Notes under the pieces: generated by a model
Database searches by the model: none
What the model saw: the letters and a program-made list of their open reading frames with translations, nothing else
What the model was told of the DNA's origin: nothing
Origin: Heterotrichella gracilis
Taxonomy: Eukaryota; Sar; Xanthophyceae; Tribonematales; Xanthonemataceae
DNA length: 64,000 bases
Reading direction: 5' to 3'
Assembly (NCBI GenBank): GCA_032358255.1
Contig: JAULBX010029488.1
Coordinates: forward strand, 1-64,000
Position numbers and translations under genes: made by a program
Part shown: in pieces, positions 1,375-64,000 of the stretch
Layout: every line of letters begins with the position of its first letter
Position numbering within the stretch: position 1 is the stretch's first letter

Positions 1375-4300
1375 CTGCAGGGGGGGAAGATGGGGGGTAA
1401 GGGTTTAATTAACGGCAGACAATGGGAAGGGTTTAGGGTTCAGGGATCAGGGTCTAGGAATATGCCCACCACTAAGGGGGCAGAATATAAAGACAGGTTG
1501 TTGCACGATTAGGGCAATGGCAGCAGCTTGAATTGGCTCAAACCACTGAGACTGTGTTACAATGACAGCCGCGCAGCACATCAACACCTCAATCCTGTAT
1601 GGAAGTTCCTCCCTTTGCACACACAATCCCACCCACCATCCTCTCACCTTGCAGAACCCTGCGCACTTCACTCAGCAGAACCCCAAATCCTAAAGCTCGC
1701 CTTGCAGAAAACCCTAAACCCTAAATCTCACCTTGCAGAACCCTGCGCAGGTCCCCGAGCTGATCACCCTGCAGAAGTCCAAACCATAAACCATAACCCT
1801 CGTCCTGCACAACCCTAAACCCTGGACCTCACCTTGCAGAACCCTGCGCAGGCCACCGAGCTGATCGCCCCAGTGGAGTTATCGCAGGCCAGCCTGAGGC
1901 AGCCCCCCTTGGATGCGCACACCTGCCCACCTGGGCAATCCCCCGCCACGTTGCAGGTGCCGGCACTGAAAGCGGTCATCCACACAGCCGCAGCCGCGCA
2001 CCTGCACACAAAATAATGCATCTGTTTGAAAAAAAGATTTAATTTTTAAACAAGGTTTTGATTTTCGGGAAATTTAAATTTCAATCCTCAATTACTTTGC
2101 AGGTGCCGGCATTGAGAGCAGTCATCCACACAGCCGCTGCTGCGAACTTAGACAATTATGACATAAAGGATGGTAAATGGAGTTGAATAGTAAAATGATA
2201 CAATTTTTGTTGGTAATCTACTGTGGAAACGCAGTGCCATGGCCAAACCTATGGTGGCTTCAAAAAGCCTTTAAGATGAGTGAACAAGGACGGTTATGTC
2301 CACTATGATTCCCATCATACCTTGACACGCACACCCCCCTGCATGACTTGACATCCTGTCCTGTGGCAGGGTCGCATGTTGTGGAGGTGATGGGGCAGGC
2401 TGACGCAGCATTGCATGTGGCGGAGCGGGGGCACTGGGTGTCTGAGGTGCAGGTGGCGTTCTGGGCCTGTGGAGTGGTGGGGAGTGGGCTGTGATAGAGA
2501 TGGGGAGGGGAGGTGTGGGGTGGTATGGGGTGGTGGGGTTGAGGGCACTGTGTGTTGGATGTGCAAACATAGGGTTTCTTTTTAAAATTGTAAAGCTTTT
2601 TTTTTTTTTAATTGGTAAAGCTTTGCGTTTCCCTGATGTTCATCGTTTGCAATCCCCAAATTCTTTTTTATAAGGCGTCCCTACACCCATCACCAACACT
2701 GCACCAGATGTGTGGTGCCCCCTTTCCAAACAAGCCGTAGCCTCCTACCCACTCAACCCGCCCCCGTCTCACCCTTCACCTCACCGCTGGATCCTGGTGG
2801 TACCATCCACACCGCCCACCACCACACCACCCACCACAACTCACCGCCGGCGCCGGCGCACTCCCATTTGCCCGCAGCCCAGTCGCTGAGCACAGGTCCA
2901 GACCCCCTCCCTTCACACAGTCTCCATGGCATTGCCCCAGCGCCATGCATAGGGCAGCAGGGCGGCCCGCTATCGGTGGTGAAAGCGCCACCGCCTGCCT
3001 AGCTTTGAGGCAGATGGTGGGGTCATCGGATGCGGTGAGGCAGAAAGAGTAGATAGCCTGCGGGGGAGGTGGGGTTTGCGAGAGTGTGAGGATTGTGTGG
3101 TGTTGGACAGATTATGTACATGTCCTATATTTAGGTGTACTTTTTAGCTAATTACACAGCTACACAATTAGTACAATAATTGTAATTGAACGTGGTGTGA
3201 TCAAAACAACCCATTCTCATCAGCCGAATTCCCCAAATATGCACAACCTCGCAAGCAACACGATGTAGTGTTTTATCGCACGGCAATTGTTTCCCCACCC
3301 CATCTGTCACCCCCCACACTCACATCAGCAGGATTGGTCCCATTCGCCAGCGCCCCCGGCAGCACCCCAGCCACAAACTGCCCCACCCCCTGCAAGCACC
3401 CCTTGCAGTCCCGGCACACATCCTGGCACTGCGTCTGGTATGCACACATGGGCACGCCCCGGCTGGTGGTGGTGGTGGAACACCCTAGAGGGTTTTGATC
3501 AAAGGCGTCGCAGGGAGAGGCGGTGGTGCGGCACACCCCAGGGTTGGTGGTGGCGGTGGTGGTGGTGGTGGAGGTGGGAGAGGGTGGGGACTGGGGGTTG
3601 GTGGGGGCGTCCCAAAAGCAGGCGCCGGTGCATTGGTCAACAATCCTGTGGAGGGTTTTGGGATGGGATTAAGGGTTTTAAATTGGACAATAGATGGTTA
3701 TTTTTGTCCGTAAAGAGATGTGCATTAGTCAACGGTCCTGTGATGGGTTTTAGGATGGGATTAAGGGTTTTGGGGTGGGATTAAGGGTTTTGGATTGGAC
3801 AGAAGGTGGTGGTTCAGATTGGGACGTCATGTGCACCTTTGCTTTGGTCTGGGAGTCAATTTGCTTGCATGCATCTTCACAAAATTCTTGCTTATCAAGA
3901 TATGATTCTTTCTATGCAAACTATAGCAGTACTGCCAGGGAAACACACCCAAACACAATGAGATTTTTTGCCCCCCAGTCACCCGCCTACACCACCCTAC
4001 TCAACCACCTCAACCCACCTGCTGTTGCACTCATCCACCACCGTGGAGCACCAGCCCCCCACGCCACACCCAGTCACGTTGCGACAGGCGTCCATCCCAC
4101 GAATGGGGCAGCACTTGTCATCTGAGGGGCACCCAGATTTGGAGCAGCGGGGCGCCACCTGGCAGCGCGGGTTGGCCGCGCATGCGTCTGGCTTGTTGGC
4201 ATTGTCGTTGCAAGGGTCGCGCACAGAGGAGCAGAAACCGCCATCCTGGCCTGCGGGGAAATGGAATAACAGCATTGGGCATGGGAGAAAGTGAATTATA

Positions 4301-7300
4301 TTCATAATTTGCCTCATCATGGAGACACCAAAACCCCCCCACTGATTGTGATTTCCATTGTAAATGCACAGAACTTTGTAAGAGCAACCTCAAATTTGAA
4401 ATAAATTTCTACTATCACTACAAAGGGCTTTGAGCACATTTCAGCAGAGGTGCCCATTTTCTGCCTGCAGGATGTATGCAGAAAACCTATGTAAATGTTC
4501 AAAATTCCACCAAAACTACTGCACCCCACCTGCATTTGCATCGGCCCGCCACACGCACGCGCTCGCCACCGACCCCTGGCAGGAAGCACCGCTGTAGAAG
4601 GTGTTGCAGGGGTCGGCCTTGGAGATGCACTGCTGGTCAAAGGCGCACCCCCCACCCCCCTGGGTTGACCTGGCTACGCATTGCTGTGTGGCGTTGGGGG
4701 CCAGGAGGGAGGCGGGGGGGAGGCAGCAGGGGTCGGAGGGGTCCCAGCACCGGAGGGTGTTGTCCACTTGGCACACCTGGGGGTGAGGTGCGTGTTGGTG
4801 TGTGTGTTTTTGGGGGCAAGGGAAGGGCAATGGGGAACATTGGCACTGCTTTCCACCAGTCCTGCCCTCTCAAAACCCCGGGCAAGGGTAGCGAAAGTTA
4901 GGCTTTTGCTACCCTAACCCCGGGCAAGCCTAACTTAAGGGCAGTGAAAAACCCTAGCAGTGGGCACCTTTTGGCTGCGCATCCAATTCCATTTCCAATC
5001 CGTCTCACAACCCTTCCAAAACCCCTCCCAAACTCACTTAAACCCTAGCCAAACGTGATGATAAAACCCTAGCCAAAACCGCACCTTTTGGCTAGCGCAC
5101 ATGGGCAGCCCAGTCCCCAAATCGGTAGCTGATGCACAGCCCGCGTAATTATACAGTGCCCCCAACCCCATTCCAAAACCCGTCCCAAAACTGTCACAAA
5201 ACCCCTCACAACCCCACCAAAACCCTAGCCAAAGGTGATGATAAAACCCTAGCCAAACCCACCTTCTGGCTGGCGCACATTGGCAACCCAGTCCCTGAGT
5301 CGGTAGCCGATGCACAGCCCGCATCACCATACAGCGCCCCCAGGATGCGGCAGGTGTCGTGGCCCGTGCGGTTGTAGCAAAACCCTCCAAAGGGTGCTCC
5401 AGGGTTGGACGGGGCTGGGGACCAGTAGCATCCCGGCAGCTGGAGGCATAAATCTGATCCACCGTAGTTGGTGGAGTTGGCGCATCGGTCGGAGGAGAGG
5501 TAGCAGTTGGTCTGCGAGTGAGGGGATGGAAGTACAATTTGTGGGATTTTTGCAAGTCCTGAACCCTACATCCTACAGAGAAGATGAGTTTTCCAGCGTT
5601 GCATTACATATGGATTGAAATTTTGCATTAATAAAAAGCACATAAGAAAAGACTGACGTAGCACAAACATGTGACGAAACATCACAGCCCAGCCCACTTC
5701 CAGAGTAAGCTACCTGCGGTGCGCATCCCGGAATTGCGCTGCACTGCTGTCCTGCGGGTGTGAGTCCCTTGAGGCCAAGCTGCTGGTGCAGGGGGGAGGA
5801 GGAGGGGAGGGGGGAGCAGCAGGGGGAGGTGGAGGGGTCACACCCGTAGCGCCAGGAGATCTGGGAGCTGCGATGGGGGATGGGGGGTGGTAAGGGAAGG
5901 TTAAGGTTAGGGTTTGGGGTTTGGGCCCATAGCGCCAGGCAATCTGGGAGCTGCGGTGGGGGGGAAGGGAGGGTGAGGGAAGGGTGAGGGTAGGTTTAAG
6001 GTTTACGCAGGAGCGTAAGGTGATCTGGGAGCTGCTGTTGGGGGTGAGGGAGGGTGAAAGGGGTGACGGTGTTAGGGTTTAGGGTTTAGCTTAAGGGTTT
6101 AAGTGGTGAGGGGGAATATCATGACTAAACACCCCCTCTGTTTGTTGTGGATGTGAATGTGGAATATACACAAGCAGGGTCATTAGCATCACTCAGAACA
6201 AGCAGCCCCATCTACTACTTCTGCTACCCACTTACCCATTGTCGTTCCCTGGCCCGCCATTCACGGTCGTGCAGAAATCAAACAGGCTGTCCTGTGTGGG
6301 TGCCTGTGCCCCCACCCTCACCAGCTGCTGGTACAGGTAGAGGGCTAAGCCACAGGTGGAACAGTCAGGGGGGGTGCCGGAGGGGGTGCCGGAGGGTGGG
6401 GAGTCGCACAGGGGGGTGGCGGCGGAGTTGCGGGCCTGGCAGAAGGCTGCGGGGTTGGGGGGTGGGGGAGCGGTGAGATATAGATGAGGGATTCGGATGA
6501 ATGTCTCAAGGTTGAAACATCCAATTGTTCAAAAGCAAATGCAAAAACGGGGTATAAAGGTCCTCATACTTTACAGGATGATAATGATACTCAGTAGTAA
6601 ATAAAAGCAGTGGCAGACAAATCACCATTGCAAACCCCAATATGCGAACAAAATGGGCTGCTGCTGACCTAATTGCATTATACACCCAACAATTGTCCAC
6701 CTAAAACAGACACACAGCACGCACGCCTATCCCCCACACGCCCTATTCCCACCATCCACACACCCACCACCCACCACCCACCTGTCGTGTTGGCCGCCGC
6801 AAGCACCTGTGTGGCATTGAGCCCCTGTCCGATGGCTGTGCATGTGGTGGCGGTGTTGGTCAGGGACTGGAGGAGAGGGGTGCACGAGGAAACGCTGCTG
6901 GCGCTGGCGCCACCTGTGGGGAGGTGGGATTCCAAGGTTTAGGGCTCTGGGTTTGGGGTTTTAGGGTGTAAGGTTTAGGCCGCACGAGGAAACACTGCTG
7001 GCGCTGGCGTCACCTGAGGTGGTGTTCGGGGTGGGGGGTCAGGGTGGGGTCAGGAGTGGGTACTGCCTGTGGTTCATTGGGGGTTGTATTCGTGCACAGG
7101 CGCATACCCACAATCTTCTCATGCGTGCTGTAACAAACACCCACCACCACCACCACCCACTTCTAGTGTCATAGGACCTCAGGTAAGAAATGACACTCTT
7201 GCAGTACCCACACATCCTACCCATTGTGCTGTCCTTATCAACCAAAGTCCTACCACCACCAATCCCCCACCAACCCCCACCACACCCACCACCACCCACC

Positions 7301-10300
7301 TCTAGTATCATAGGACCTCAGGTAGTCAGACATGACCCTCTGGCAGTACCCACACACCCGCCCCACATCCGCTGGGCCGCTGCACATGCCCATCACATCG
7401 CGGCAGGCAGACAGGGGTAGGGTTTTGAGGACGCCCCCAGACCCTATTAGGGTAAGCAGGGTGCGGCACTTGCTGCGCGCGGCGAGGGTTTGCTGGCAGT
7501 AGGTGTCGTTGGGGGAGCACTGGATTTTCTGCAGGGGTGGGAGCGATGGGGTCGGGGTGTGAGAGGAGGTGTTGACGATGTGAAAAAGGGGCCAATTCCA
7601 GTTAGGTGCTACCAGCTTAAGGGATAGTGAACACAATGCTTTTGGATCCAGATCGAGCTTTTGAAGCGGGCAAGGACCTAGTTAAAGATGTACAATAGCA
7701 TACTTGCAAGGTATTAAAGGTGGCATTCCCTTCTCCAGAACCCTAGCACTTAAAGGCGGCCTTGCCACCCCTCACCCCATCCACACACCACACACACATC
7801 CAGCACCCACCCCGCCCTTGCCCCCCTCCCCACCACCAGCACCACCACCACCGCCACCCACCCCTGTGTTGCAGCTGACTCCCCAGTTGCAGTATCCCCT
7901 GCCCCTACATGTAGTCGAGCTGTTCCACAGATTGTAACACTCCTGGTAGGCGCGGTGGGAGCAGTAGCCAGGGCCAGGGGAGGAGGGGGGGTACATTCCC
8001 ATGCCATTTGATGCCGGGGACACATTTCCTGGGGGCCCTGACATGTTGCCTTGCATGGGGGTGTAATTGTTTCCAGGGGCGGGGGGTCCGGAGAAATTGA
8101 AGTATTGGGATTGGGATGGCGGTCCCCAGAAGATGCTCCATCCCGGGGAGAGGTTGGAGATGGAGGGGATGTAGAAACTTCCGGTGGAGTTTCCGGTGGA
8201 GTTGCCGTTGTTGGGGTTGTTATTGCTTTGGGAGCTCACATATGCGCAGGCGTTGTATGCCTCAAGGGGGGTGGTGGCGTTGGCCAGGATGGCTACAGAA
8301 GGGGGTGGCAAGGGGGTTAAAAGGGTTGGTAAAGAGACCACGCAGGGGAGAAATTGAAATGGCTTAGTTAGTAACATGCATTCCAGCAACACAGCTAGAT
8401 CAGCCAGATTAGGGTTCATAATCTAGGATTTACTTGTATGCTGACCCCTGTAAGCGGTCCTTGCACTCAGTGGGCATTCAGCCGGCCAGGGTTTAGGGTT
8501 TAGGGTTTAGGATTTAGGGTTTACTTACTTGCCGCCCCCTGCATGCAGTCCCAGCACCCAGTGGCGTTCAGCTGGCCGGGGGAGCACAGGCAAACCACCT
8601 CGCACACCCTGCGCCAGGAAATGAAAAATTGTGAGCAAGTAAGTGAAATAATGGCTGAGGCGCCAGGAGGACTTCATACATCACAAGCAAATATTAGTAA
8701 GTGACATATTGTAGTCCTCCTGGGGGCGCATCCTTAAGGTTTGCACAAGGAGACAGCAAGAGCCAATTTCCATGGCCCTTCTACAATACAATTCTAACCA
8801 ATGAACCGTTTTATTAGCATTAATTTTCACCTGGTTGCGTTATTTTTTGTGAGCAGCTTGGGCTGTGCGGTGACCAGGCCTTGCACTCGCATGCACCTGA
8901 TGCCCCCTTCAGGCACAGCTCATACCCCCCGGGTATCCACGTACTATAAATACGAAATTGTTATTGCATTGACCACTTTATTCAAATTTGCGCACCTTGT
9001 TGCGTACTTGTTAGTCAGCAGCTGGGACTGTGCGGTGACCAGATCCTGCACTTGCAGGCACCTGGTGCTTCCCCTCAGGCACAGCTCAAACACCTCCCGG
9101 CACAGGCCAAACCCTTCCATGGGCCTCCCAAAATACACACTCAACTCGAATTCCCAATTTACACATTTATTTTCGCACCTTGTTGCGTTCTTGTTAGTCA
9201 GCAGCTGGGGCTGTGCGGTGACCAAGTCTTGCACTTGCAGGCACCTGATATTACCCCTCAGGCACAGCTCGTATACCTCCCTGGGAGCTGTTGCGTTGCG
9301 CAGCACCTGGCCCGCCCCATCCATGCAGTTGGCGCAGGCGGTGGTGTTGGTGGGGGGGTAGGGGCACAGGCTGAGGGCGGCGCACAGCCTGCGGGTGGTG
9401 GTGGTGGTGGTGGTGGTTGGGATGGTGGGTGGAGAAGGAGAGAATGAATCTCACCCATGTTGGTGTGAGCATGCTGTGGTTGTGCATATCCCAGGCATAT
9501 TGCATCTTTCCCGAGTGATATGCATGTAGAGCATCAAATCAACCCTTGTTAGGGTTTCTCCTACCTGCAGCTGTTCCTGACTGGTAGGGTTGGGTGGCTG
9601 ACAGAAAAACATAGGCTAGGCAACACGTAATTACACAACTCATGTAGCATTGACATACAGCTGTTTCCCTTTCCGTGTGTCCTTTTCTGTCTCCAGCTTG
9701 GATAATTAATATCATGTCCTTTGTCATATCCACAACCATGGACCTGCATGCAATATTCATCCCCCCCTCACCTTGCGCTGTCCTTGGCCTGCAGTATGGT
9801 GGCGTTGGCGGCAACGGTTGCATTAGCCAGTGCACACAGCTTCTTCTGATCCAGGTAGGTGGCGCCACCCAGCGGGGGCACGCGCTGTTCCACGCATGCC
9901 TGGACCAGGGACTGAGCGCTGCCATTTGCCAGGCGGAGGGCGTCTGCAGTGGGAGGAGGGGTGATTTAAAGGTTCTAGGTTTTGAATTTTAGGTTTTTTG
10001 GGTTTTTGCTTTATGACGGCGAAGTGCGTCTGTGGACAGGGGTAGGAAAATCACTCCTCAACAACTGCTCCTGTAGGCCACAAGTGCATGGTCTATGCAT
10101 TTGCCATTGTTGGATGCTTCTTGTCTGGGGCATCGAATGGATGTACCTGCATCAGGGTTGTTAGGGCTATGCTAGGGTTTTGACAGTTTCTTTGGGGCTC
10201 GTACCGTTGGCTCCCCTGATGCAGTCGTCGCATTCGGGGGGGTGCCAATCGCTGCTCCTCCACACCCACGCTGGGTCCCCCACCGAAACGCCGCCGTAGA

Positions 10301-16172: not shown

Positions 16173-17017
16173 ATGGTATATAAATTTACCCCACTGGTAG
16201 CTCACTGAAAAGTTGGACACTGCATACACGTCATCCTGTCAGTGTCAGTCTAAAAACAACAACTCTCGAAAACGCACCGCACAGGTTCCGCACCCCTACA
16301 AGTGTCTACAAGTACAACCAGTTTCAGCCTACCAAGAGGGCCCAAAACAAGTACACCCAAAAAATGAAGTACAGTAGAATGCAGGGGACCACAATTCTAA
16401 ATGATGGAAAAAGAAACGCAGTGCTGCAGGCAGGAGGTCAAATTGACCCAGCAAGAAACCCTAAACCCTCAACCCAGCAAAGTAGGCAACAGCCCTGTCA
16501 GTGGGGATATCTGCAACTGCGAGGCCGAGGATACAAGGAGCTACAAAAGTACGTAGTGGGTTGTCTGCAGCTTCACCCAGCTTCTATGCTACACGCGTAT
16601 GGCACAGTTTGTACACTCTACAGTGGCACCATGGGATCCGCCTGGTACTGCCCCACAAAATCCTCGGTGCTAACATACAAGTACCAGCAGGCAACCAGTA
16701 ATTCCAGTGCATATTGCTACAAAGAGTTGGTTGCCTTTATCAAATGGAAAAGAAAATTTAATACTGTGGCTTGAGTGCCACAGCCCCGGTCTCAAAAAAT
16801 CGGAAGGGATGCGTGTACTCGAGCAAATGCATGCAACAGTGCGAACAAAAGCCGGGTAGTTCATCTACAAACGCGCAACATGCGCTGATTGATTACTGCG
16901 CATAACCAATTGAAAGGGTTGGCGCTACAGCTACCCCGCCACCTGGACCCCAAGACAACGCTCTCCTGGCTACATGCGTCCCTTCCTGTCCTACATCTAC
17001 GCCCACTCAGGCGCACT
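16173..17017. other. Intergenic stretch with no supported gene
   Basis: AT-balanced sequence between the giant glycoprotein gene and the DUF4864-like gene. It contains one CCCTAAACCCT unit near 16460. I see no family similarity in the short open frames and no RNA gene. Confidence 0.5.
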
Positions 17018-17440
17018 CCAGCGCTGGTTCACACCACCAGTGTCAGCTTGTCGCAATTGTCTCCCACCAGGATCTCTGTGAACCAGTAGCGACCATAATG
17101 CCCCCCAGCTGCTGCACTGACTGACTACCGCTGTGTGGTCCAGCTGTGCGCAGTCAGCTGCATGCCCTGGCGCCGCAGCTATCGCCTGCCCTCTCCCACT
17201 CGGCATTCTATCCATGACCCAGGGTGCTGCCTCCAGCATTGGTTCACACCACCAGTGTCAGCTTGTCGCACTTGTCTGCCACCAGGCTTTGTGTGAACCA
17301 GTAGCCGTCGTAGTGGCCCCCCAGCTGCTGCACTGACTGACTACCAAAGCTGTACAAAGTCAGTTGCACGCCCTGGCGCCGCTGCTACCGCCTGCTCCTC
17401 TCCCACTCAGCACTCTGTCCATGACCTAGGGTGCTGCCCT
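17018..17440 (-). repeat. Two degenerate copies of the last exon of the DUF4864-like gene
   Basis: TTCACACCACCAGTGTCAGC, the 3' end of the coding region at 17451, recurs at 17028 and 17243, giving spacings of 215 and 208 bp. Each copy continues into the GAACCAGTAGC and CCCCCAGCTGCTGCA part of the exon and then decays. The copies follow the real stop codon and are probably untranslated. Confidence 0.75.
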
Positions 17441-17451
17441 CCAGCGCTGGT

Positions 17452-18740
17452 TCACACCACCAGTGTCAGCTTGTCGCAGTTGTCTGCCACCAGGGTCTCT
17501 GTGAACCAGTAGCCGTCGTAGTGCCCCCCCAGGCGCTGCACCATTGTGAACTCAAACACGCCCTCGCCGCCCGCCTTGCTGCCCACGAGCACCCGCTGCT
17601 TCCACACAAAGTCAGACACCTGCACCGCAGCTGTGGGGTCAGACAGGATGCAATGATGTAGTGCGTAGTTTACCCTCAGAGGCGACCCCTGTCTCCAGTC
17701 CATTGCGTGCTAGTGCCTTTATGAGACATGATACTTTTGGACAATGATCTAACCTTCTTGCGTCATACGGAGATAGAGTAGCGAATCAAAGTACTCCCAT
17801 ATGTGGTGACGCAAGGTATGGAAACCCTAAACCCTACACCCCGGTCGTCAGCCGAGGGCAACGTCTAGTTGGCAAGTCCGTGTCCCCACAAGCTGCTTGG
17901 CAAAGCCAAACTAAAGGCATGATGCGCTAGGTAAGGGAAGAGGCCTCCAAGACCGCTGTTGAGGTATTTCTGTGCATGAGCCATGGGCAAGTGACCCCCT
18001 CAGTGGTGTTACATGCCTCTTTACGTGAGCAAAGTGAGTGTAACTGGTGGTGAACACGTACCTCTAGGGAACTCAGGTATTCGTATTCGGTGTGGCTGAG
18101 CAGTGGGCGGTAGCAGGGAGTGTGCAAGACTCGCCGAAACCGTTCAAACTGGCCCAAGTCAAAACTTCGCCTGCAAATAAGCAAAAAAGACAATTGGTAT
18201 TCCACTCATTCTACGAGTCCGCTTAGGAAGATATGATTGTATAAATATGGGGAACTGACCCTCCAGGTCCGAGGGAATCACCAAGAGAGCTGGAGCAAAA
18301 ACTGATATGCATGCATTGTGCCCCTACCCAAAGTAAAACGACCTCTTGAAGGGGTCGAGGTTTGCGAATCGGTAGAGCACCTCGATGCCGTGGTCGTAAT
18401 ATGGTCTGTCGTTCTGGTGGACGGCCTGCACAACCGAAGGCGTGTAAAGTTGCTGTTCTATTAATGAGCCCTTATTTCAAAATGGCATGCACACTGTCGT
18501 GTTCACCTGCAGCTGCATGCGGACTGCGTCCTCCTTGGACAGGTTGAAACAGGGTCCCAACGTCCAATCCTGTCGCTGCTTGGGTTGCGGGAGGGGGATG
18601 AACTCGCTGCCTTCACTGTACGAAGCAATGACAGGTCTTCGCCCAATCCTAACATGGCCGCGCCGCGTCAAAGTTTGCGGTATGTGTAACAGGCCACTGG
18701 GACCGCAGCGACCAGAGCAGCTGCGCATAGCCAGGTCCAT
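17452..18740 (-). CDS. DUF4864-like (NTF2-fold-like) protein
   Basis: Four exons in consistent phase, 18740-18507, 18425-18328, 18170-18062 and 17619-17452, give 202 residues. Family features, read by eye, are EDAVRMQLQAVHQNDRP, then YRFANLDPF, FERFRRVLHTPCYRPLL, and SLEVSDFVWKQRVLVG followed by VFEFTMVQRLGGHYDGYWF. This order matches the DUF4864 family of plants, algae and bacteria, which has an NTF2-like fold and no known reaction. The N-terminus up to about residue 36 is basic and could be an organelle-targeting peptide. A second frame at 18886-18668 encodes a hydrophobic stretch (WLCAAALVAAVPVACY) that could be a membrane segment if an upstream exon or a frameshift joins it; I chose the ATG at 18740 as the simplest start. 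Confidence 0.6.
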
Positions 18741-19508: not shown

Positions 19509-22500
19509 GGCCTGTTGAAAGATCAGCTGGAGTGTACGAAGGTTACACAGCAGGATGGGTCAGCTCGATACACCATAAAGCCGCTTGGGGGCGAGCTGTC
19601 CTTCGACAAGGTGGGTAGCAGCCGTCTGGTACTGTCTACCACCCGCCGATTGCGTGGTCCATCTTGATCAATGGCATGCGGGCTTCCGCTCGCTGTCTGG
19701 ACACCAGGCTGGCAAAGCAGCTCATTTGGAAACTGTACCGGCAGCTACGCAATGCCCAACACAGGGCAAAGCACTTCAGTTAGACTGCAGCCGTTTTGGT
19801 GTGGTCACGTACTGCCGGCTGGAGCGATTTCGGGACTTACCTGCCTTGTCATGCCACGTACTGCCGGCTCATGCCCTGCCATGCCTCCACCACGCACCTC
19901 CACCTTGCGGGAGCTCAATTCAGTATCCAACCAACTTCACCCACCTACAGGGACTGTTCGTCTTCATACGGGCCATCCAACTGCTCGTCAGCAGAAACAC
20001 GGGGGTGGTTATGGTAAGCCTGCATCCTACTCACCTCACCACCCAGGCCCAAATGCCATAACAGTTTGAAAACAACTGGAGCTTTGGTCCATGCCCTTGC
20101 TATTTTCCAGCTGAAATGGCACTCTGGCAGTGGCTTGTTGGTCCCTTGTGCCGGCATGACCACCACACTTGCGATATCTGTGCAGGTGGGTATTGCGGGC
20201 GCCTCAGGGTCTGGAAAGACCGCTTTCTGCGAAAAGGTGCAGTCTTTCCTGCCAGGTACGCCGCAAGACACACACACACACACGCTGTGCCCACTGCGGC
20301 CATCAATGCACACAATGCGTGCATGGCATGCTGGTTGCCTAGCCGGTCCCCATCATGGCTGCAAGCCAGGTGCCCTCCAATAGGGTTTTCCAAGCTTTGC
20401 TTCTAGACGAGGGCCTTCCTGTCCACCATTACTCCCTGCTGTGAGCTGATCCACCAAGCTTGGAATCCCTACACCCCGTGGCTTGTGAATGCGCCGCAGC
20501 ATGCTCGGACCCTAAACTAGGGTTTGGCCGCCCTTGCCTTTGTCGCCCTCCAGTTGAGCTGCCCCCCTATCGTGCGCAGGATGCGCCGTGCTGTCCATGG
20601 ATAACTACAACGACGCCAGCAAGGTCATTGACAGCAACTTTGACGGTGCGCACCGAAAACCCTAAACCCCCGACCCTAATGCCTCGCCTGGTGGGCCCTT
20701 GTTGGGGATTGCGTTCTGAAACTTTAAACCTCTGGCCTGTTCCTCCAAAGTGCAATTACGCATCCTCCCCATCACATGGGCAAGTCCCCCTTGAAAGCCT
20801 CTCTACAGACCCTAGCTAAGGGTGGCGGGCACGCCCTGCGCAGACCCTCGCCGGGCTGGCGCCTACCCCACATCGTAAGGGTTTCATTCCCGTTAACCCT
20901 AGGGTTTTGCCCTGCAGACCCTCGCCTGACTGACTACGACCTGTTGCTGCAAAACATCCGTGACCTGAAGGAGGGCAAGGATATAGAGGTGCGCACACCG
21001 CGCCCACACAATGCCCTACAGGTTTTTCACAGGGGGTGTCACCTTATGTCAGAATGCAATTCAGAAGAATAATTGAAAGTCTGCTGCAACGCCATGGGCA
21101 GCTTGGGGCGAAGCAGTTCCCGATCTTGGGAGGCAAGGAAAGAAGGGGACAGCGCTGCATGCAAAGGGATACAGGAGTTGTCCTACCGCAATTTAGGGCA
21201 CCTCAAAATCCTACCAACGGGATGTCAACCAATCCAATTGTGGCAGGGGGGGGCAGCAATTTGTAGTGTTTGCGCCACTCCTCATTGAGGTCAACTAGCC
21301 AGCATGCCAAGGAAGGGGCACGCCCCTGGGTCACATCCACATTACCCACCCAGCAGTGATTCACCACTCAAAATCCAGCACCATATTTCACCATTCACCA
21401 CAACCACCATCCACCACCTGCCCTCCACTACCCAGTGCACCCCCAACCACCCCCCACAATGCACCCACCCACCCCTCCCCCTCCCTCCCAGGCACCTGTG
21501 TCTGACTACAAGGCCAGCGCTAAACCCTGATTTCTAACCCTAAATTCAGTGCATCCTCCCTCCCAGGCACCCGTGTATGACTACAAGGCCAGCGCCCGCA
21601 CAGGGTACCGGCCAGTGCCCATTCCGGGCAACAGGGTGGTGCTGCTGGAGGGGATATACGCCCTGTCAAGCAGGATACGGTGAGACCCTAATCCCCAGTT
21701 CACAAAACCCTAAACCCTGCCCAGCGCCCATCCCGGGCAACAGGGTGGTGCTGCTGGAGGGGATATACGCCCTGTCAAGCAGGATACGGTGAGACCCTAA
21801 ACCCCAAACCTTAAAACCCTAAACCCTGCCCAGCGCCCATCCCCGGCAACAGGGTGGTGCTGCTGGAGGGGATATACGGGCTGTCAAGCAGGATACGGTG
21901 AGACCCTAAACCCCAGATCACAAAACCCTAAACCCTGCCCAGCGCGCATCCCCGGCAACAGGGTAGTGCTGCTGGAGGGGATATACGCGCTGTCAAGCAG
22001 GATACGGTGAGATCCTACATCCCAAAACCCTGCCCTACACCGTAGCCATTTGATGAGACCCTGAAACCCTAAACTGCAAAGCCTACGTTATAGCCATATA
22101 ATGAGACCCTAAAAACCTAAATTCCAAATTCTGCATAATTAATACCTGCCAGCAGGATGCTATTTTGGCAGGGGATATTTGCGCTGGCAACGAGGATACA
22201 ATGCGACCCCGTAAAACCTGCGGCGATCCTCGACAACGTCTAGGGATTGTTTTTGTCCTTTTTCTTGCCACCACACCCCACCTAACTCTTACCTCGCTCA
22301 TCCCATTGCACTCACTCTAACACACCATCCCCCATTCCCCAGGCCGCTCCTTGACCTGCGTGTGAGCATCACGGGTGGTGTCCACTTTGACCTTGTCAAG
22401 CGCGTGCTGCGGGACATCAACAGGTCGGGGCAGCAGCCGCAGGACATCATCAGCCAGGTAGGGGATGGGTGGTGGGGGTGGTGTGTGGGTTGGTGGTTGG

Positions 22501-42089: not shown

Positions 42090-42146
42090 CAACACTAAGT
42101 GCAGCAAAATCAGTGCCCGACTGGCCAACAAGCTTAATGCGCTCAT

Positions 42147-45800: not shown

Positions 45801-47428
45801 GCTTGAAGGCCCTCCACGGCTGCAGGGAAACCTCAACCTGTGCAAGGGGGGGGTTCAGGTGGTGAGGAAGGGGGGATTGCAGGAGAGAGGGTGAGAAAGA
45901 GGGCACAGGGGTGAGCAGGGGGCAAAAAGGGGGGTTGTACATTGGATCAAGGTGCGTTGGAATTTTGAGGCGAGCTGCGCTGCCGCACAATGGTATGTGC
46001 TCCCTTCTTTTTGGAAGTCCCAGTGCATATTCCACAACAGATAAATAGAATGAAGTGAAGCATTTCACGAAGCGGCAGGGGTTGTTGCAACCACTTCTAT
46101 ATGTGCCACCTCCGGAGGGCAGTCTTCCAAGGAGGGTACTGACGTGGGATGGTTAGGGTTCCCCACACCTATCACCACTTCCAACCCATTTAGGCCCTCC
46201 CTGAGAACAGTTGATGGCATAGGGTGTAGATATGTCGCACCGCCAGGCCCACATTCTCTGGCCACTCCCTGAACGTGGTTTAGGGTTTTGGGGTGCAAGG
46301 TTTAGGGTAATAGGGTTTTCGCACCGCCAGGTCCACGTTCTCTGACCGCTCCCTGAAGGTGGTGTGCTTCTTGCACATCTCCTGGTACACCTGGGGAGGG
46401 GGGAATACCCTTAGCTAGGATGCACGGAGATTGCAGACCCGCGTGGGCAGCGTGCGGGACGTGCATGTTGCACAGACGAGGCAGTGACAACGCACATGCA
46501 GCCGCGCATTGGAGGAGAGAAGCTTTGCTCAGCCAGCAATGGTACAGTCAGGGTGGCTGGCAGCTAATACTGTAAAGGTTTGTTAGCACCATCAAACGCC
46601 CCAGTGGCGAAACAAAGGGGCGTTTTCAATTGCTAGTTAAAACACGCTTGAAAAAATTCTACTGTGCAGTCGGATGGTATGTGTCAGGGAAGGGCACTGC
46701 TTTTGAGTAGTAAGACCAGGAGGGTCTGGGTTGGTGCCTGGGTAGGGTGGGTGGGTGGTGGGGTGGTACCTTCATGTACCGTCCAGCTTGCCTCATCATC
46801 CACACGGGGGGCCTCTCCACGGCATCCCCACGCACAGCACGCAGCAGCAGGGGGACCTCCTCGGCCTGTGGGGTGCCAGATGCTGTTCAGGGTTTAGGGT
46901 AGACACCCCCAACGGGGCAAAGTGCTACAACTGAGGTCCCGGACGACATTGGGGCCAAGGGATGTCTGCGCAGGGGGTGAGCGAAATGCGACGCATTGCC
47001 TGTTTTAACAACCACCAAAAGGATTGTGAAGTTTGTGATACGGCTTGGTGCAGAAGGAGGTGGATGGCGCACGACCCACGTTATACAACAGAGTGCCGTG
47101 GTAGGCGTTGTCGCCATTGCCGTTGAAAGTTTACTGCATTCTCTGCAGTATTTAAATTGGACTTACTGTGCCTGTTGTTGCAGAAGCTGGGACCTCGGTT
47201 GCGGCCACCGATCGCACGCACAGGCGGGCCCGAGCATGCCTGGTGGCTGCCCTGGTGGGTGCCCGGGTCGTGCATGGTGTGCCCACCTGCAGTGGGGAAA
47301 GACGTCGCAGGTCAGTCTAGTGCTAGCTGGTACTAGGCTGCAAATAGTATTGTTTGCATAAACTATATGCAAACCAGCATTGTAGAGCACTGTACTGGAC
47401 GTACCTTGGCGGACATGGTGGAGTGCAT
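42814..47428 (-). CDS. Uroporphyrinogen decarboxylase, plastid-type
   Basis: Ten phase-consistent exons, 47428-47405, 47286-47167, 46865-46770, 46390-46325, 45837-45685, 45264-45132, 44776-44643, 44110-43979, 43659-43519 and 43002-42814, encode 395 residues. The enzyme decarboxylates uroporphyrinogen III to coproporphyrinogen III in the haem and chlorophyll pathway. Residues 1-48 are Arg/Ala/Thr-rich without acids until late, as in chloroplast transit peptides. Mature signatures are [12 protein letters not shown] (67-78), [11 protein letters not shown] (substrate aspartate D123), [31 protein letters not shown] and LNLGHGVLP with the conserved histidine. Length and order match plant HEME proteins, and I see no lesion. 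It is the only intact gene inside the SAP-relic island. Confidence 0.95.
44250..44340 (-). repeat. Partial copy of UROD exon 44110-43979 upstream in its intron
   Basis: Plus-strand 44262-44334 (AAGTCCTCAAGAGGCCAAAT ... GGATGCACTGGGCGCCGACA) repeats 44041-44112. On the coding strand it still reads [10 protein letters not shown] but then shifts frame. A CAG acceptor is retained. Confidence 0.8.
44757..45000 (-). repeat. Four-fold repeat of the 5' edge of UROD exon 44776-44643
   Basis: The exon start with its acceptor (plus-strand ACAATGTAGCAGGCTGCGGT at 44765) recurs at about 44834, 44910 and 44975 as TGTAGCAGGCTGCAGCGGG, ATATAGCAGGCTGCATTG and TGTCGCAGGCTGCGGCGG. TTTAGGGTTTGGGG-type sequence separates the copies. 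Spacing is about 65-75 bp. Each copy offers a possible acceptor. Confidence 0.85.
46228..46292 (-). repeat. Copy of the tail of UROD exon 46390-46325
   Basis: GCACCGCCAGGCCCACATTC at 46236 and the following 25 bases repeat the real exon end at 46321-46365 with few changes and keep the GCGGTGCGA donor. It is followed by TTTAGGGTTTTGGGG. Confidence 0.8.
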
Positions 47429-54828: not shown

Positions 54829-55988
54829 CAGAGCCAACAGACTAGTCCTTCTGGAGTGCTGGAGTGCGCTTCCTTCACCTGCAATAGAGCTCACTGCTGC
54901 TGCCCTGACCATTCACACAGAACTAGGTGCCTTCTGGACGCTTCAGGACATCGCTCAGCAGGCAGCGTCTGTGGCGCTGGCCGGCCCATCCCACCAGCTG
55001 TGCCAGGAGCTTTCCCAGGAGATCTGGAGACAGCTTCGTTCCTGGCTGCCACCACCGCCAAAGTGCCCTGCACCACCAGACTTTGACACCATGACACTGG
55101 CACAGCTGAAAGCCTCTGCAGCCATCGTCCAAATCTCCAAGGGGGGAGCAAAGGCAGAGCTGATAGCCAGACACAGGGACCATCTGGTGCAGATGCAGCC
55201 TGACCAGAACCCTCGCACCGTGCACCACAAGCAGCGCGAGTTGGTTTTGGGTGACGAGAGGAGCCGCAGGGTGCGGCGCAGGGTTCTAGACTCAATTGCC
55301 AGGGAAACCTATGGCCTGAGCTATGAGGATTTCGAGCAGCTCAAGTGCCAGACAGTTGAGTTCCCTCTTGAAAACCCAGCCTTTCCGTATCGGGTCCGCC
55401 TCTATCGAGCTGCTGAGGTGAGGCGCATTGCCAGGGAAAAGCACGGCACGCAGGCAGCATTCCTGGCAGCACAGCGGGACAGCGACCCAATCTGGCAGGG
55501 GCGCAAGACAGCGCACAAGCAGCAACGCACACAGGAGCTGACCACAGCCCTGCAGGCAAAAAACCTGGCTCAACCTGCAATCAAGAACCTGTCGCCATTG
55601 CACTGTTCTCCAAGCCCTGCACCAGGTACATTGCGTATGGAGCACGCGGCCGCCGGGTGACCCCAGACGGCATCGCCATGAAATGGAGTTTTACCAGCAG
55701 CACACACGATACGAGGATTTCAGGGTCCTTGTGAGAGAGCGGCAGAACTATGGAGAGCAGGCTGTGTACAAGGATGCAGCTGAACATGACAATAATTAGG
55801 ACCGGCTGGATGTTATGGCATTGTGGATGGCACTGGATGCGTGGGTGAAGGGGTGTGGGTCCAGGGAAATGGCGCTGCGCAGGCCTGAGCTGCCTGCCAG
55901 TATGCGCAACTGGGAGAGCTTGCCTTGGGCAGCGGGTCAGGGAAAGAGTGGTGCCCTCCTGTGGGACCTTGACTTGGAGGATGTGTGA
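54829..55988 (+). pseudogene. SAP-family copy 6: lost start, stops and insertion
   Basis: The start codon is ACG at 54829 in an otherwise conserved CCAxGGCAAG context, and a TAG follows eight codons later with a small local duplication. The frame from about 54850 then keeps PAIELTAAALT, DIAQQAASVALAG, the SAP motif (TLAQLKASAAIVQISKGG), ETYGLSYEDFEQL and AAEVRRIAREKHGTQAAFLA. A 14-base insertion near 55578-55591 shifts the frame, and the GGPGTPDSI part is rearranged around a GCGGCCGC site at 55647. The C-terminus (GCGSREMALRRPELPASM ... LLWDLDLEDV) ends at 55988. This is the most decayed full-length copy. Confidence 0.75.
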
Positions 55989-56195
55989 TGCAATATGGGG
56001 CTTTATTTGTGGGACCTAGACTTGGAGGATGTGTGATGCAATATGGGGGCTTTATTTGTGGGACCTTGACTTGGAGGATGTGTGATGCAATATGGGGGCT
56101 TTATTTGTGGGACCTTGACTTGGAGAATGTGTGATGCAATATGGGGGCTTTATTGTGGGACCTCAACTTGGGAGGATGTGTGATGCAAAATGCGT
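55961..56195 (+). repeat. 49-bp minisatellite made from the 3' end of SAP-family copy 6
   Basis: Units begin with GTGGGACCTTGACTTGGAGG at 55961, 56009, 56058, 56107 and 56155 (period 48-49 bp). Each contains the last codons, the TGA stop and the ATGCAATATGGGGGCTTTAT sequence after it. The first unit is the real 3' end of the pseudogene; the rest follow in tandem. Confidence 0.9.
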
Positions 56196-57809: not shown

Positions 57810-57980
57810 CAACAGGAAAAGGCCAGATGCATGCGGAGCGGAGAGCATCATGAATGCGGCAAACCCTAAATCTGCAGGGCTTCGCCAACGCAACAGGACA
57901 GGAAAAGGCCAAATGCATGCGGAGCGGATACCATCATGAATGCGGCAAACCCTAAACCTGCAGGGCTTTGCCAACGAACC
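57810..57980. repeat. Two tandem copies of an 86-bp unit
   Basis: GGAAAAGGCCAGATGCATGC at 57815 recurs at 57901 (GGAAAAGGCCAAATGCATGC). Both units continue with GGAGCGGA, ATCATGAATGCGGC, AAACCCTAAA and CTGCAGGGCTT. Confidence 0.85.
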
Positions 57981-58750: not shown

Positions 58751-61518
58751 CTATGCAAACCTGTCTATCCGCACAGTAACCACCCTGCCGGCCACCTCTT
58801 TGTCGTTCATCTTGTCAACAGCAGCGATGGCGTCCTCCTTGCTGGCAAAGCGCACCACGCCAAAGCCCCTGGGAAAAGGGAATGAAAAACGTTGTAAAAT
58901 ACATTTCAAAACAGCACAAATGTAATTTAGGTGGGGATTGGTCGAGGACTAGCAGGGTGGCACGTGGTATTGGCATAGTGTGGGGGTTACTGAAGGGTCT
59001 GGTTGGATTGCTGGCACCCAAGTTGGCCCAACTGGCAGCATGCAGGGACAGGTGAGAATGCTGTTAAGGAGTGGGATCTGAGTGTGGCTAGGGACAGAAT
59101 CGGGAGGCGGCTTGTGTGCAAGCGCTGTGCAGGTTGGAGGTGTGTGTTTGATGTCAACGTGACAGGGGGATGGGGGAGGGACCCTGCCACAGGGCAGCAT
59201 CTAGGTGTTTAGGGTTTAGGTGTGGGTGAGGTGGCCCTGGTGCGAGGGACTTAGCACAAGCAAGGAGTGCATCCAACACCCTGTGATCACTCAAAGAAGT
59301 AGAGGCGAATGGCAGGGTCTTGGGGAGAACGGTGCGTGGGGCAGGTGTGCATTGATGTGCGCATGCATATGGCGCCCTGCGAGGGTAGCATGCATTTCAC
59401 AGTCCACAGTATGCGATTTGTGTGACATGGGTGTCCTTGAAATGTGCTGGGCATTGCGGCGATGGGATGGAACCCTCCATGATGGTTATCGATAACCTGC
59501 CGAAAGCATTTTGAGGTAGGGTGTATATTAGGGTTCCCATCTTGACCTACCGCAGTCACCGTCCGCCCACTTCCTGCTATATATATTTCATTATTTAAAA
59601 GCAGGGCATTTTATTAGGGTTCAGGGTAGGGTTTCTCCTAAGGATTTTCCTCACCTTGACCTGCCGTAGCTGTCGTAGACCACGTCCGCCCGCTCCACGT
59701 TTGCACAGTCGCGGAAGGCGTCCTTCAGTTGCTGCCACGTGCAGTCATAGGGCAGGTTGTGCACGACGACCTGCAAGGGGGAGGGGGACGGGGCGCGTGA
59801 GCACGGCTGGGTTTAGGGTTTAGGGTTTTTGAACGGGTGGGTGCGCTGCTTATGGCCCTGCGGTGGGCACTTCCCCCCAATCTGCTGTCTGTTTTCTATG
59901 CAGCTAGTATGCTGAGGGTGGTGAAGGGGGTGTGTGGTACTGGTGTGAAGGGTATGCCATGGTCAGCAAAAGAGAGGATGGTGAAGTACTGGTGTCAATG
60001 GTGTGGCATGCAAAAGAGAGGGGACGTGGGGATGAAGGATGGCGCCTGCCTGCATGCAACTGGCTCTGCAAGAATATGCACACAGATTGCCAGAACAGTA
60101 TGACATGACACACGCCAGGACCGCATGTGGGGCATTGACAAGGTGGCAGTGGTGGTGGCGGTGGGCGGAGGCACTCACTTGCAGGCCGCTGGACACCCCC
60201 GGCACGCCTGGTGGCGGTCGCCGCTCAGCAATGCCCCGCCCCCCCCTCCCTCGCGCGCCCCCTCGCGCCCCGCCCCGGAAGAAAAACACCCCCTCGGGTG
60301 CGTACGTCGGCATGGCAGCCGGCATGGCGCCGGGAATGAAGCCCCCCGGGGCCCCTCGCCCTCGGCCCCTGCCCCGCGGCGATGGGTAGCTATACCCGTA
60401 CCCCCCTCGCCCGGGTGGTGCCTCGTAGTATGCGTAGCCATACCCTCCTCGGCCGCCCTGGTAGGCAGCGTACTCATAGTCGTACTGCGGTTGTTGTTGG
60501 TAGGGCCGGCGGACGGCGCCCTGCAAGCACCACACCCCCCACGTGTCAATGTTCAATGTTTCCACTGATGCAAGTGAGATGAGCGCCGATGGGCTGCTCC
60601 CAAACTCGTTGGGAGTCGAACTCAATACGGGGACATATATACTGGGCGATTCCACGGTCGATACGAACGGTATGAATCAGCCGCTTGGGAATGAGTGCAT
60701 GGGGCCCCATGACCAGGCCAGTAGACTATTCAAAGCCATGCGATACGAAAGGTCCTCCTTTATTATCCGGCTAAGAAGCACAGGCTGCCAGGGTTGTACG
60801 CAACATGTTGCAGCGAAACAAGCACTCGTCCTGGCAAACAGCCTCGCCCTGAACATCCAAAGTGCAGTTTCTATCTCCTCCCGCCGACTGTGTTCCCAAC
60901 CTTCGAATGCCCAAGTGTTCTATGCAACTTTCCTGGCGTTTTCAAAACACGGTAAACGCCCCCACCACCCCAGCCCCAGTTGCGACCTCCTTGCATATAC
61001 AGCTGTGCCGGCGCTACCAGTGTATGTATATGTATGCACGCACCTGTGGAGGGGCGCCCTCTGGTCCCGAGACATGCACAGCTTTTTTCTTCCCGTCCTC
61101 CCCTTCCTCCACCACAAACTCCACCACCTCGCCCTCCCGTAGACTGCGGAAGCCGGGCGCCTCGATGCTACTCTGCGGGACCAATACAGCGCAGGTTGGG
61201 CGCCATGGGCCACGACCAATAGAAACGGGTCTGCAAGATAAGGTGACATGCCGATCACAACCCATAGTTTGCGTCCCACCCCCAGAACAAGCTGGTTACC
61301 CAACCCTCTGTCTTCCACCACGAAAGGTGTAGGTGGGTGCTGCCCACTTGTCGTACCTGGTGTACGAACAGGTCCTCACCCCCGTCGTCAGGAGCAACGA
61401 ACCCATATCCCTTGTAGGCATTGAACCACCGCACGGATCCCCTTGCTTTGCCGCTGGGTTCCCCATGCTCCACTACCTGTTCCACCTGCTCTGCCTGCGG
61501 CTCTCCATGCTCGCTCAT
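58751..61518 (-). CDS. NAB1: NAB1-type cold-shock/RRM RNA-binding protein
   Basis: Five phase-consistent exons, 61518-61357, 61172-61044, 60520-60179, 59770-59655 and 58868-58751, encode 288 residues. Residues 24-95 are a cold-shock domain ([36 protein letters not shown]). Residues 98-211 are Gly/Tyr/Arg-rich with RGRGRGR and [12 protein letters not shown] boxes. Residues 212-288 are an RRM ([25 protein letters not shown]). This is the order and wording of Chlamydomonas NAB1, a cytosolic repressor of light-harvesting (LHCBM) mRNA translation that is controlled by arginine methylation and cysteine redox state. The linker is longer than in the 247-residue Chlamydomonas protein. Cys221 aligns with Chlamydomonas Cys181, but Val267 occupies the Cys226 position. 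The ATG at 61518 is the only one ahead of the cold-shock domain in frame. Confidence 0.93.
59528..59580 (-). repeat. Partial copy of the tail of NAB1 exon 59770-59655
   Basis: CCATCTTGACCTACCGCAGT and the following CACCGTCCGCCCACTTCC resemble the exon end at 59651-59698. TTTAGGG-like repeats flank both. The copy lies in the intron after the real exon. Confidence 0.6.
59800..60178. other. NAB1 intron 3 with TTTAGGG repeats
   Basis: Intronic sequence between exons 60520-60179 and 59770-59655. GGGTTTAGGGTTTAGGG lies at 59811. Nothing else recognisable. Confidence 0.5.
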
Positions 61519-61674
61519 AGCTGCGGGTAACGGACTCAATAAGATACAGTCTTGCTACCATGCGTTAGGAAACGAAGCCTGGTCCTCCCTGCGCCCCTGC
61601 GCCTCACACAGCCCCAGCCATAGCACCCACCCAGCAGCACAGCAAGTGATACCGCACAACGACAGCCCAGGCTC

Positions 61675-63280: not shown

Positions 63281-64000
63281 CTACCCATCCATGTCCTGAG
63301 GCCCTTGCCCAAGCTCCTGCACCTGCGCCCGCCCTGGCCCCGCCCTGGCCCCCGCCCCCACCCCCGCCAGCTTGTGCAGCAGCAGCGCCACCTCATCGGT
63401 GTCCTTCACGTAGTAGGGCGCCTTGGAGGGCTTCTGGCCAACCGTGCAGGCAAACACCTGCGGGGGAGGGTGTAGGGTTTAGGATTAAGGGTTTAGGGTT
63501 TGAGATTAGTATCCTTGACTAGGAGGGCGCCTTGGAGGGCTTCTGGCCAACCGTGCAGGCAAACACCTGCGGGGGAGGGTGTAGGGTTTAGGATTAAAGG
63601 TTAAGGGATTGTGTCCTTACATAGTAGGTCGCCTTGAGGGAGCCTTGGCCCACAATGCAGGCAAACATAGGCAGGGAGTGCGGGGCTGGGGGGTGTACAA
63701 GGGTGGGGGTTGGCAACCGGGCGGCATGCGCACCACAGCTGAAGAGGGTGAGCATGCGGGCACAGGCGTGGTTGAAAAAGGCGGCTATCACATGTGTGCA
63801 ATGGGGAGGGGAAGGGGGGAGGCACCCATATTGCTACAAGGAAACTGGTGCCTCACCCATCTTCTCACCATGCACCCACCACCACTCCCTCATCCACCAC
63901 CCCCTCAACCCCCCCACGCGTACCTCTGCCGGCATGTGTGGCGAGAAGGTGACATGCTCAATGGCGTCAAACATGTCCTCATCGCTCCGGTCATCTCCCA
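63281..64000 (-). CDS. Class II trehalose-6-phosphate synthase/phosphatase-like protein, C-terminal end (5' part beyond window)
   Basis: Two exons are visible: 64000-63924 (partial) and 63457-63281. The first reads GDDRSDEDMFDAI, the aspartate-rich HAD-phosphatase motif of the trehalose-phosphate phosphatase domain, then FSPHMPAE. The second continues in phase 0 as VFACTVGQKPSKAPYYV, DTDEVALLLHKLAG, and a short Gly/Ala tail with stop TAG at 63283-63281. This is the characteristic end of plant TPS proteins with fused synthase and phosphatase-like domains (class II), which mostly act in sugar signalling. Catalytic competence cannot be judged from this piece. Confidence 0.88.
63515..63690 (-). 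repeat. Two copies of the 5' edge of the last TPS exon
   Basis: GGCGCCTTGGAGGGCTTCTG at 63526 with CCAACCGTGCAGGCAAACAC and the CCGCAG acceptor repeats 63418-63463 almost perfectly. A degraded copy lies at 63622-63672. GGGTTTAGGATTAA units separate them. A transcript using the copied acceptor would meet a stop soon after. Confidence 0.85.

What the first reader, a model, noticed from the sequence alone, without database searches (positions are those of the whole stretch)
1630..63690. Exon edges with their splice sites are tandemly duplicated into adjacent introns in six different genes
I see at least seventeen cases in which the last or first 20-120 bases of an exon, plus its donor or acceptor, are copied once to four times in the neighbouring intron. 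Examples are TTM 21617-22010, UROD 44757-45000, TPS 63515-63690, DUF4864-like 17018-17440, NAB1 59528-59580, and about ten intron edges of the giant glycoprotein gene. Most copies sit beside CCCTAAA/TTTAGGG units. A common process is implied, such as break repair at splice junctions with telomerase-like or template-switch addition. It would enlarge introns, create decoy splice sites and offer raw material for new exons.
Basis: partly seen in the sequence, partly recalled or inferred. Interest (0 to 1): 0.85.

Follow-up and report, generated by a model that had tools for sequence, protein, structure and literature searches.

The report
Telomere-stitched exon-edge duplications at introns
In this alga-like genome many introns carry short duplicated pieces of their neighbouring exon, splice site included, often joined on by bits of telomere repeat; this looks like scars of DNA-break repair that sit at exon-intron borders far more often than random repair would place them.

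Summary
In 264 kb (window plus 200 kb of another contig) I found 52 local direct duplications, 0 inverted and 0 in shuffled sequence. Of 51 events classified, 37 contain a donor or acceptor and 5 are intron-only; random placement gives 11 and 24. Of 344 introns, 54 carry a copy of their own exon edge; both controls give 0. Copies usually stop 0-13 nt past the splice site (16 of 21; 15-17% in simulations). Of 21 short spacers 16 hold telomeric heptamers. Conversely, 56 of 153 telomeric tracts are flanked by a direct repeat, against 3 of 912 shuffled flanks. CCCTAAA arrays begin contigs and a telomerase domain is encoded. Best reading: double-strand breaks near exon borders, repaired with telomeric filler and duplication of the flanks; the outermost splice site keeps working and the copy becomes intron. 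The parts are known; I did not find their concentration at splice junctions described. Why breaks cluster there is open. Gene models are ab initio, one genome, no RNA data.

The parts
1642..1870 (-). large minus-strand gene: copies on both sides of the 37-bp exon 1732-1768; donor side with TTTAGGG (sense) filler, real donor gtgaga|tttaggg..., copy gtgaga|ggatgg...
1948..2147 (-). large minus-strand gene: acceptor-edge copy, 54 bp, 87%
3628..3810 (-). large minus-strand gene: acceptor-side duplication (52 and 47 bp)
4983..5342 (-). large minus-strand gene: 179-bp unit spanning a donor
5843..6088 (-). large minus-strand gene: acceptor-side duplication, telomeric unit at 5907-5915
6882..7019 (-). 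large minus-strand gene: acceptor-edge copy 38 bp, 92%, telomeric tracts in the 62-bp spacer
7133..7365 (-). large minus-strand gene: donor-edge copy
8409..8581 (-). large minus-strand gene: 91-bp unit at a donor, with telomeric tract 8488-8523
8818..9284 (-). large minus-strand gene: 165-bp unit spanning a donor
17013..17541 (-). 2.5 copies of a terminal coding end with its stop codon (gene-end type, not a splice site)
21480..21595 (+). TTM gene: acceptor + 29 bp of exon copied upstream, 95%, telomeric filler 21520-21544
21612..22026 (+). TTM gene: 3.8 units of 109 bp = exon end + donor + CCCTAAA-rich stretch
   Evidence: exon in a PRK/CYTH segment
22917..23218 (+). duplication spanning a predicted donor, 81%
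24816..24951 (+). duplication spanning a predicted donor, 79%
25525..25628 (+). donor-edge copy 40 bp, 95%, 23-nt spacer almost wholly telomeric
44037..44464 (-). UROD: weaker duplication (71%) that includes the start of the exon coding [10 protein letters not shown] (by eye)
44755..45000 (-). UROD: 3-4 copies of acceptor + about 25 bp of exon, with telomere-like sequence between them
46235..46363 (-). UROD: donor-edge copy, 89%, telomeric spacer 46277-46318
59528..59580 (-). NAB1-like gene: weak donor-edge copy (read by eye, below the search threshold)
63399..63667 (-). TPS: acceptor + about 50 bp of exon in a 110-bp unit with telomeric tract

Best explanation
These are scars of double-strand-break repair near exon-intron borders. 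A break with staggered ends falls close to a splice site. One end is extended with telomeric repeats (TTTAGGG on the left end or CCCTAAA from the right end), both overhangs are filled in, and the ends are joined, so that the 20-100 bp between the two nicks is duplicated on either side of a short telomeric filler. Because the duplicated stretch carries the splice site, the copy next to the exon is still spliced and the other copy is left inside the intron, which grows by the unit length. Repetition gives arrays such as TTM and UROD. Shown: direct local copies, a template that is not spliced mRNA, telomeric spacers, flank repeats at telomeric tracts, end points close to the splice site, a continuous protein when the outermost border is taken (LysA, UROD). 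Inferred: staggered 3' overhangs, telomerase as the filler enzyme, breaks being more frequent at these borders rather than merely kept there, and splicing at the outermost site in general.
For: 37 of 51 events contain a splice site and 5 are intron-only; a simulation of random tandem duplications passed through the same detector expects 48.9% splice among splice+intron, observed 37 of 42, p 1.1e-7. Homology runs from the exon through the splice site (own-intron match 0.75 at offsets 2-6 for donors against 0.42 for other introns) and, pooled, not into the next exon. It ends within 13 nt of the splice site in 16 of 21 copies of >=0.85 identity, against 15-17% in simulations (p about 6e-9). 16 of 21 spacers of 14-76 nt hold an exact telomeric 7-mer (my count of the rows); in a separate set 8 of 17 spacers of 10-70 nt did, 1.15 expected from duplication-free intron stretches. 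56 of 153 telomeric tracts have a flanking direct repeat, 3 of 912 shuffled, 50 of 997 random intron positions; 43 of 90 within 70 nt of a splice site against 2 of 22 deeper than 150 nt. CCCTAAA arrays lie at the first bases of six contigs and, in reverse sense, on five more, and a TERT RNA-binding domain is present. LysA, as the gene finder gave it, aligns with no gap at the junction beside its copy; UROD does too once the copies are left out. Published precedents: telomeric repeats inserted at break sites in mammals, some with target-site duplication (PMC2246262, PMC7215372, passages); small tandem duplications from breaks with 3' overhangs through CST and Pol alpha-primase (PMC8355091, abstract and passages).
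Against: Five of the 21 copies run 31-74 nt into the intron, so the end-point rule is not universal. Five of 21 short spacers and 8 of 13 spacers over 76 nt hold no telomeric unit. Gene ends are duplicated too (17013-17541; two cases in C2), so a splice site is not essential. Per intron the edge excess of telomeric units outside duplications is modest and absent in introns of 800 bp or more. On the unedited sequence my gene finder called some copies exons (three extra in TTM, others in UROD and the DUF819 gene), so their status as intron rests on protein homology, not on RNA. No related genome or second haplotype was available to polarise any event (TTM region only). The null models use rates I chose (exon sites at 0.3 of the neutral rate, indels at 0.12).
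Confidence: 0.55

Rival explanations
1. Random local tandem duplication everywhere plus selection: duplications inside exons are lost, those across a border are harmless and therefore seen.
For: Exon-only events are depleted (6 observed, 13.6 expected). Gene-end duplications are the same kind of harmless event. Full-unit duplications without a spacer exist (TTM, several C2 clusters).
Against: Intron-only duplications, equally harmless, should be about as common as border ones after correction for detection (51% expected, 5 of 42 observed), and end points should not sit at the splice site.
Confidence: 0.25
2. Selection on splicing: telomeric units near intron ends and the copies are kept because they help splicing (CTAAA as branch point near the acceptor, GGG runs near the donor).
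For: Within 60 nt telomeric runs are G-rich in sense 56 to 33 near donors and C-rich 53 to 17 near acceptors (bins summed; Fisher 1.3e-6). Words that could be branch points (CTCACC, CTAAAC) are enriched near acceptors.
Against: Both orientations occur at both ends; it does not by itself explain copies of exon sequence or flank repeats at tracts.
Confidence: 0.1
3. Slippage or unequal exchange in minisatellites that contain telomere-like words.
For: Arrays exist: TTM 3.8 units, 55960-56192 with 4.8 units of 49 bp.
Against: In 36 of 52 clusters the best pair of copies is separated by an unaligned spacer, which slippage alone does not make.
Confidence: 0.06
4. RNA-templated: exon pieces returned from mRNA by a reverse transcriptase.
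For: Copies begin at exon edges and telomerase is a reverse transcriptase.
Against: The copy continues into its own intron and not into the next exon: pooled match to the next exon 0.19-0.32 beyond offset 6, as for unrelated introns. Unspliced RNA as template is not excluded.
Confidence: 0.04

Closest known systems
Interstitial telomeric sequences inserted at double-strand breaks in mammals (PMC2246262, PMC7215372; passages read)
   Same: Short telomeric repeats inserted at break sites, sometimes with target-site duplication.
   Different: There duplication accompanies 4.6% (rodents) and 16% (primates) of the insertions studied and the intron share in human (31%) is compatible with random insertion; here 56 of 153 tracts have flank repeats and 90 of 131 intronic tracts lie within 70 nt of a splice site, 33% expected.
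Small tandem duplications from breaks with 3' overhangs, CST/Pol alpha-primase (PMC8355091; abstract and passages)
   Same: Unit sizes of tens of bp, direct orientation, made by fill-in of both ends; CST is also a telomere fill-in complex.
   Different: No telomeric filler and no splice-site preference in the passages I read; experimental breaks.
Tandem duplication across an intron-exon boundary in a potato gene (PMC4974935; [quoted passage not shown] passages)
   Same: A duplicated segment crossing a splice junction with inherited splicing signals.
   Different: There a new intron was gained; here existing introns are lengthened, with telomeric spacers, in many genes.
Repair-mediated duplication by capture of proximal DNA in vertebrates (PMC2671141; passages)
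   Same: Local copies, some with filler, at breaks.
   Different: Pairs within 50 bp of each other were excluded there; among donors 278 were intronic and 4 partial exon/intron, the opposite of the bias here.

Membership tests
Interstitial telomeric sequence inserted at a break | Insert made of the species' own telomeric unit | tested here: met
   eight-unit CCCTAAA arrays at the start of six contigs and in reverse sense on five more, whose ends I infer; same unit in spacers
Interstitial telomeric sequence inserted at a break | Empty orthologous site in a relative | not testable with these tools
   no relative held (text); no second haplotype of the TTM region
Interstitial telomeric sequence inserted at a break | Insertion sites random with respect to gene parts, as reported for human | tested here: not met
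   90 of 131 intronic tracts within 70 nt of a predicted splice site, 33% expected
Small tandem duplication by overhang fill-in | Direct, adjacent or nearly adjacent copies of tens of bp | tested here: met
   52 direct clusters, 0 inverted
Small tandem duplication by overhang fill-in | Dependence on CST, Pol alpha-primase and NHEJ | not testable with these tools
   needs mutants
Intron gain by tandem duplication (AGGT model) | Collapsing the duplication removes the intron | tested here: inconclusive
   6 of 51 events are exon-only after collapse. By eye two look like borders the gene finder missed (window 1948, C2 723), one is low-complexity coding (C2 15460), one is unclear (C2 1271), two were not examined

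The most novel reading that the evidence does not exclude
Exon-intron borders are themselves break hot spots in this lineage, perhaps through R-loops, G-quadruplex-forming telomeric units or bound splicing complexes, and telomerase plus fill-in repair at those breaks is a main engine of intron growth: introns grow from their ends, each event adding a telomeric tract and a copy of the exon border that reaches about +6 (donor) or up to 13 nt (acceptor) into the intron.
Probability: 0.25. Interest if true: 0.85.

Novelty: new variant of a known kind. Interest (0 to 1): 0.62.

Why it matters
How introns gain length and where decoy splice sites come from is mostly guessed from decayed sequence. Here the scars are fresh enough (exon parts up to 97% identical over 39-74 bp, with telomeric filler intact) to read single events, and they link telomere-type repair with splice junctions. 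About one intron in six in the sample carries a detectable border copy (54 of 344), so the genome could serve to test whether breaks are tied to splicing or transcription.

Tried and rejected
Spliced-mRNA template: rejected on pooled data. Chance similarity or low complexity: rejected by shuffles, reverse-complement and other-intron controls. Stop codons in telomeric units forcing the gene finder to end exons there: three other TAA-bearing heptamer families of the same composition show no clear edge excess, except TAACCCA near acceptors in one subset (9 hits, 2.1 against 0.7 per kb), and introns with strong coding flanks or strong splice scores keep the telomeric excess. Second haplotype as a time marker: only the window itself and three 30-43-bp telomere-like matches were found for the TTM region. 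A first density measure (12.0 and 11.4 per kb at edges against 3.2 in the middle) over-states the effect because tracts are clumped; the per-intron count is the fairer one.

Rows dropped and known flaws. In one search the main TTM array is not among the 51 first-round events because a neighbouring cluster was processed first. The collapse keeps whichever copy gives the better gene score, which may lean towards borders; the simulation classifies whole units, longer than aligned copies, which leans the other way. By eye, TPS and C2 399-643 (classed intron) and C2 723-930 (classed exon) look like borders; I left the automatic classes unchanged. One search used 344 exon pairs (flanking exons >=30 bp, introns 60-3000 bp) out of 410 predicted introns. 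Searches kept 29 copies that touch the exon edge (distance <=3), 21 of them at >=0.85 identity; one (C2 reverse coordinate 13944) has a probably misplaced donor, which would make it 15 of 20. Organism: a green alga is my inference from the telomere unit and plant-like proteins; no call names it. Novelty rests on paper searches only, several with capped lists (20 of 49, 15 of 152, 12 of 31, 12 of 23); most subscription papers are not in that library.
Full report
What was checked. The window is given as contig C695, positions 1-64000, of a 68.5-Mb, 903-contig genome. I added 200 kb of contig C2 (C2 sample coordinate plus 20000 is the contig coordinate) as an independent sample. No annotation was available, so I wrote a self-trained HMM gene finder; it settled on 434 exons and 406 introns with a donor consensus CAG|GTGRGT and an acceptor with a C/T-rich tract ending in TGCAG|G. 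Its models have visible errors: merged genes, wrong strand in places, and copies called exons (three extra in TTM, others in UROD and the DUF819 gene). As a check, protein segments around the duplications were compared with Pfam: URO-D, PRK and CYTH, CSD and RRM_1, Trehalose_PPase, PHD types, Ribonuclease_3, DUF819 and Sec23/24 domains matched, for 8 of 8 segments given. I had edited several of these segments by leaving out stretches that I took for intron or copy. LysA is unedited and aligns to diaminopimelate decarboxylase of known structure with no gap at the junction beside its copy (STITK|VNIFRD). UROD with its copies left out aligns with no gap across [11 protein letters not shown].

Observation. 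Local direct duplications (<=700 bp apart, >=28 bp, >=75% identity, >=46 bits) number 17 in the window and 35 in C2; inverted ones 0; three shuffles of each 0. After collapsing each one and predicting genes anew, the 51 first-round events fall on donors (20), acceptors (14), both (3), exon only (6), intron only (5), gene end (2) and intergenic DNA (1). Random placement of the same lengths gives 11.35 with a splice site (maximum 20 in 400 runs) and 24.1 intron only. A simulation with 1600 random tandem duplications, mutated and passed through the same detector, predicts 48.9% splice-containing among splice plus intron-only events; observed 37 of 42.

The same from the exon side. In 344 introns the terminal 60 bp of the flanking exons match their own intron (score >=30) at 36 donor and 21 acceptor edges, 54 introns in all; another intron cut or repeated to equal length gives 0, the reverse complement 0. 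For exons of 180 bp or more: edge 26 of 350, next 60 bp 7 of 350, next 60 bp 2 of 350.

What is copied. Among 29 border copies (15 donor, 14 acceptor), pooled, the homology goes through the splice site into the intron and the continuation matches the next exon no better than unrelated introns, so the template was DNA or unspliced RNA. In 16 of 21 copies of at least 0.85 identity it stops 0-13 nt into the intron (median 6 over the 21), whereas simulated random duplications measured the same way have a median of 37-38 and only 15-17% at 13 or less. The other five run 31-74 nt. An example, window minus strand near 1731: functional donor gtgaga|tttagggtttaggg, copy gtgaga|ggatggtgggtg.

What lies between. 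Of 35 border-copy rows, 21 have spacers of 14-76 nt and 16 of these hold an exact telomeric heptamer; of 13 longer spacers 5 do; one spacer is zero. In the cluster list, 8 of 17 spacers of 10-70 nt do, with 1.15 expected. Duplication-free introns of 200 bp or more hold such a heptamer in 16.9% of donor-side and 11.0% of acceptor-side 60-nt windows (40 and 26 of 237), and 7.6% of windows in the middle; introns of 800 bp or more show no edge excess. Starting from telomeric tracts instead of exons, 56 of 153 have a direct repeat in their two 110-nt flanks (score >=30), against 3 of 912 shuffled flank pairs and 50 of 997 random intron positions; by place 43 of 90 within 70 nt of a splice site, 5 of 19 at 71-150 nt, 2 of 22 deeper, 2 of 16 in predicted exons, 4 of 6 intergenic. 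The 56 of 153 and the shuffled control use no gene models; the split by place does.

Telomere and telomerase. Eight-unit CCCTAAA arrays (33 overlapping matches on 11 contigs) lie within the first 200 bases of six contigs in forward sense and on five others in reverse sense, as expected of right-hand ends (contig lengths were not shown, so those ends are inferred). Two pieces of a TERT RNA-binding domain are encoded on C626.

Mechanism. A break with staggered ends near a border, telomeric extension of one 3' end, fill-in and joining would give copy-filler-copy in one step. Small tandem duplications from breaks with 3' overhangs, dependent on CST and Pol alpha-primase, are reported in mouse and human cells (PMC8355091, abstract and passages). 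Telomeric insertion at breaks is reported in mammals (PMC2246262, PMC7215372, passages). Their combination here is inference. The orientation of telomeric runs differs between ends: near donors 33 C-rich and 56 G-rich in sense, near acceptors 53 and 17. I read this as selection at acceptors for a C-rich tract with a possible branch point; it is untested.

What stays open. Random duplication plus selection explains why border copies survive, but not the lack of intron-only copies or the end points at the splice site. Break hot spots at borders would. G-quadruplex motifs are reported about 3-fold enriched near splice junctions (PMC9065059, start of abstract in the listing only), which is a lead and no more. 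Limits: one genome, 264 kb, ab initio gene models, no RNA, no relatives, null models with rates of my choice.

Novelty. In ten paper searches none of the listed titles or abstract starts describes telomeric-filler duplications at splice junctions; several lists were capped and most hits were not opened. Opened: PMC2246262, PMC7215372, PMC2671141, PMC3443670, PMC8355091 (passages) and PMC4974935 (outline and abstract). Vaughn and Bennetzen 2014 (rice tandem duplications) was seen only as a reference entry; its content is recalled.

Noticed in passing
window 35171-42090 and 48285-56000: About six diverged paralogues (most pairs 69-78% identical DNA) with a segment like LKAIAASVKISRQGKKAELAARLRAHLVKM, in both orientations; a local gene family.
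   Followed up: no
window 55960-56192: 49-bp minisatellite, 4.8 copies, 94% matches, beside one of these paralogues.
   Followed up: no
window 17013-17541; C2 sample 8975-9349 and 198024-198416: Duplications of gene ends (stop codon and 3' side, by eye for the C2 cases) rather than splice junctions; the same process may act on any coding/non-coding border.
   Followed up: partly
window 20510-20525: Head-to-head telomeric motif ccctaaactagggttt inside a predicted intron.
   Followed up: no
C2 sample about 147117-151116 (protein 14): An intron-bearing predicted gene whose protein looks like a LysR-type regulator (by eye; no family search run).
   Followed up: no
window 57812-57976: 86-bp duplication with a CCCTAAA unit in apparently intergenic DNA, one of few not at a coding border.
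   Followed up: no
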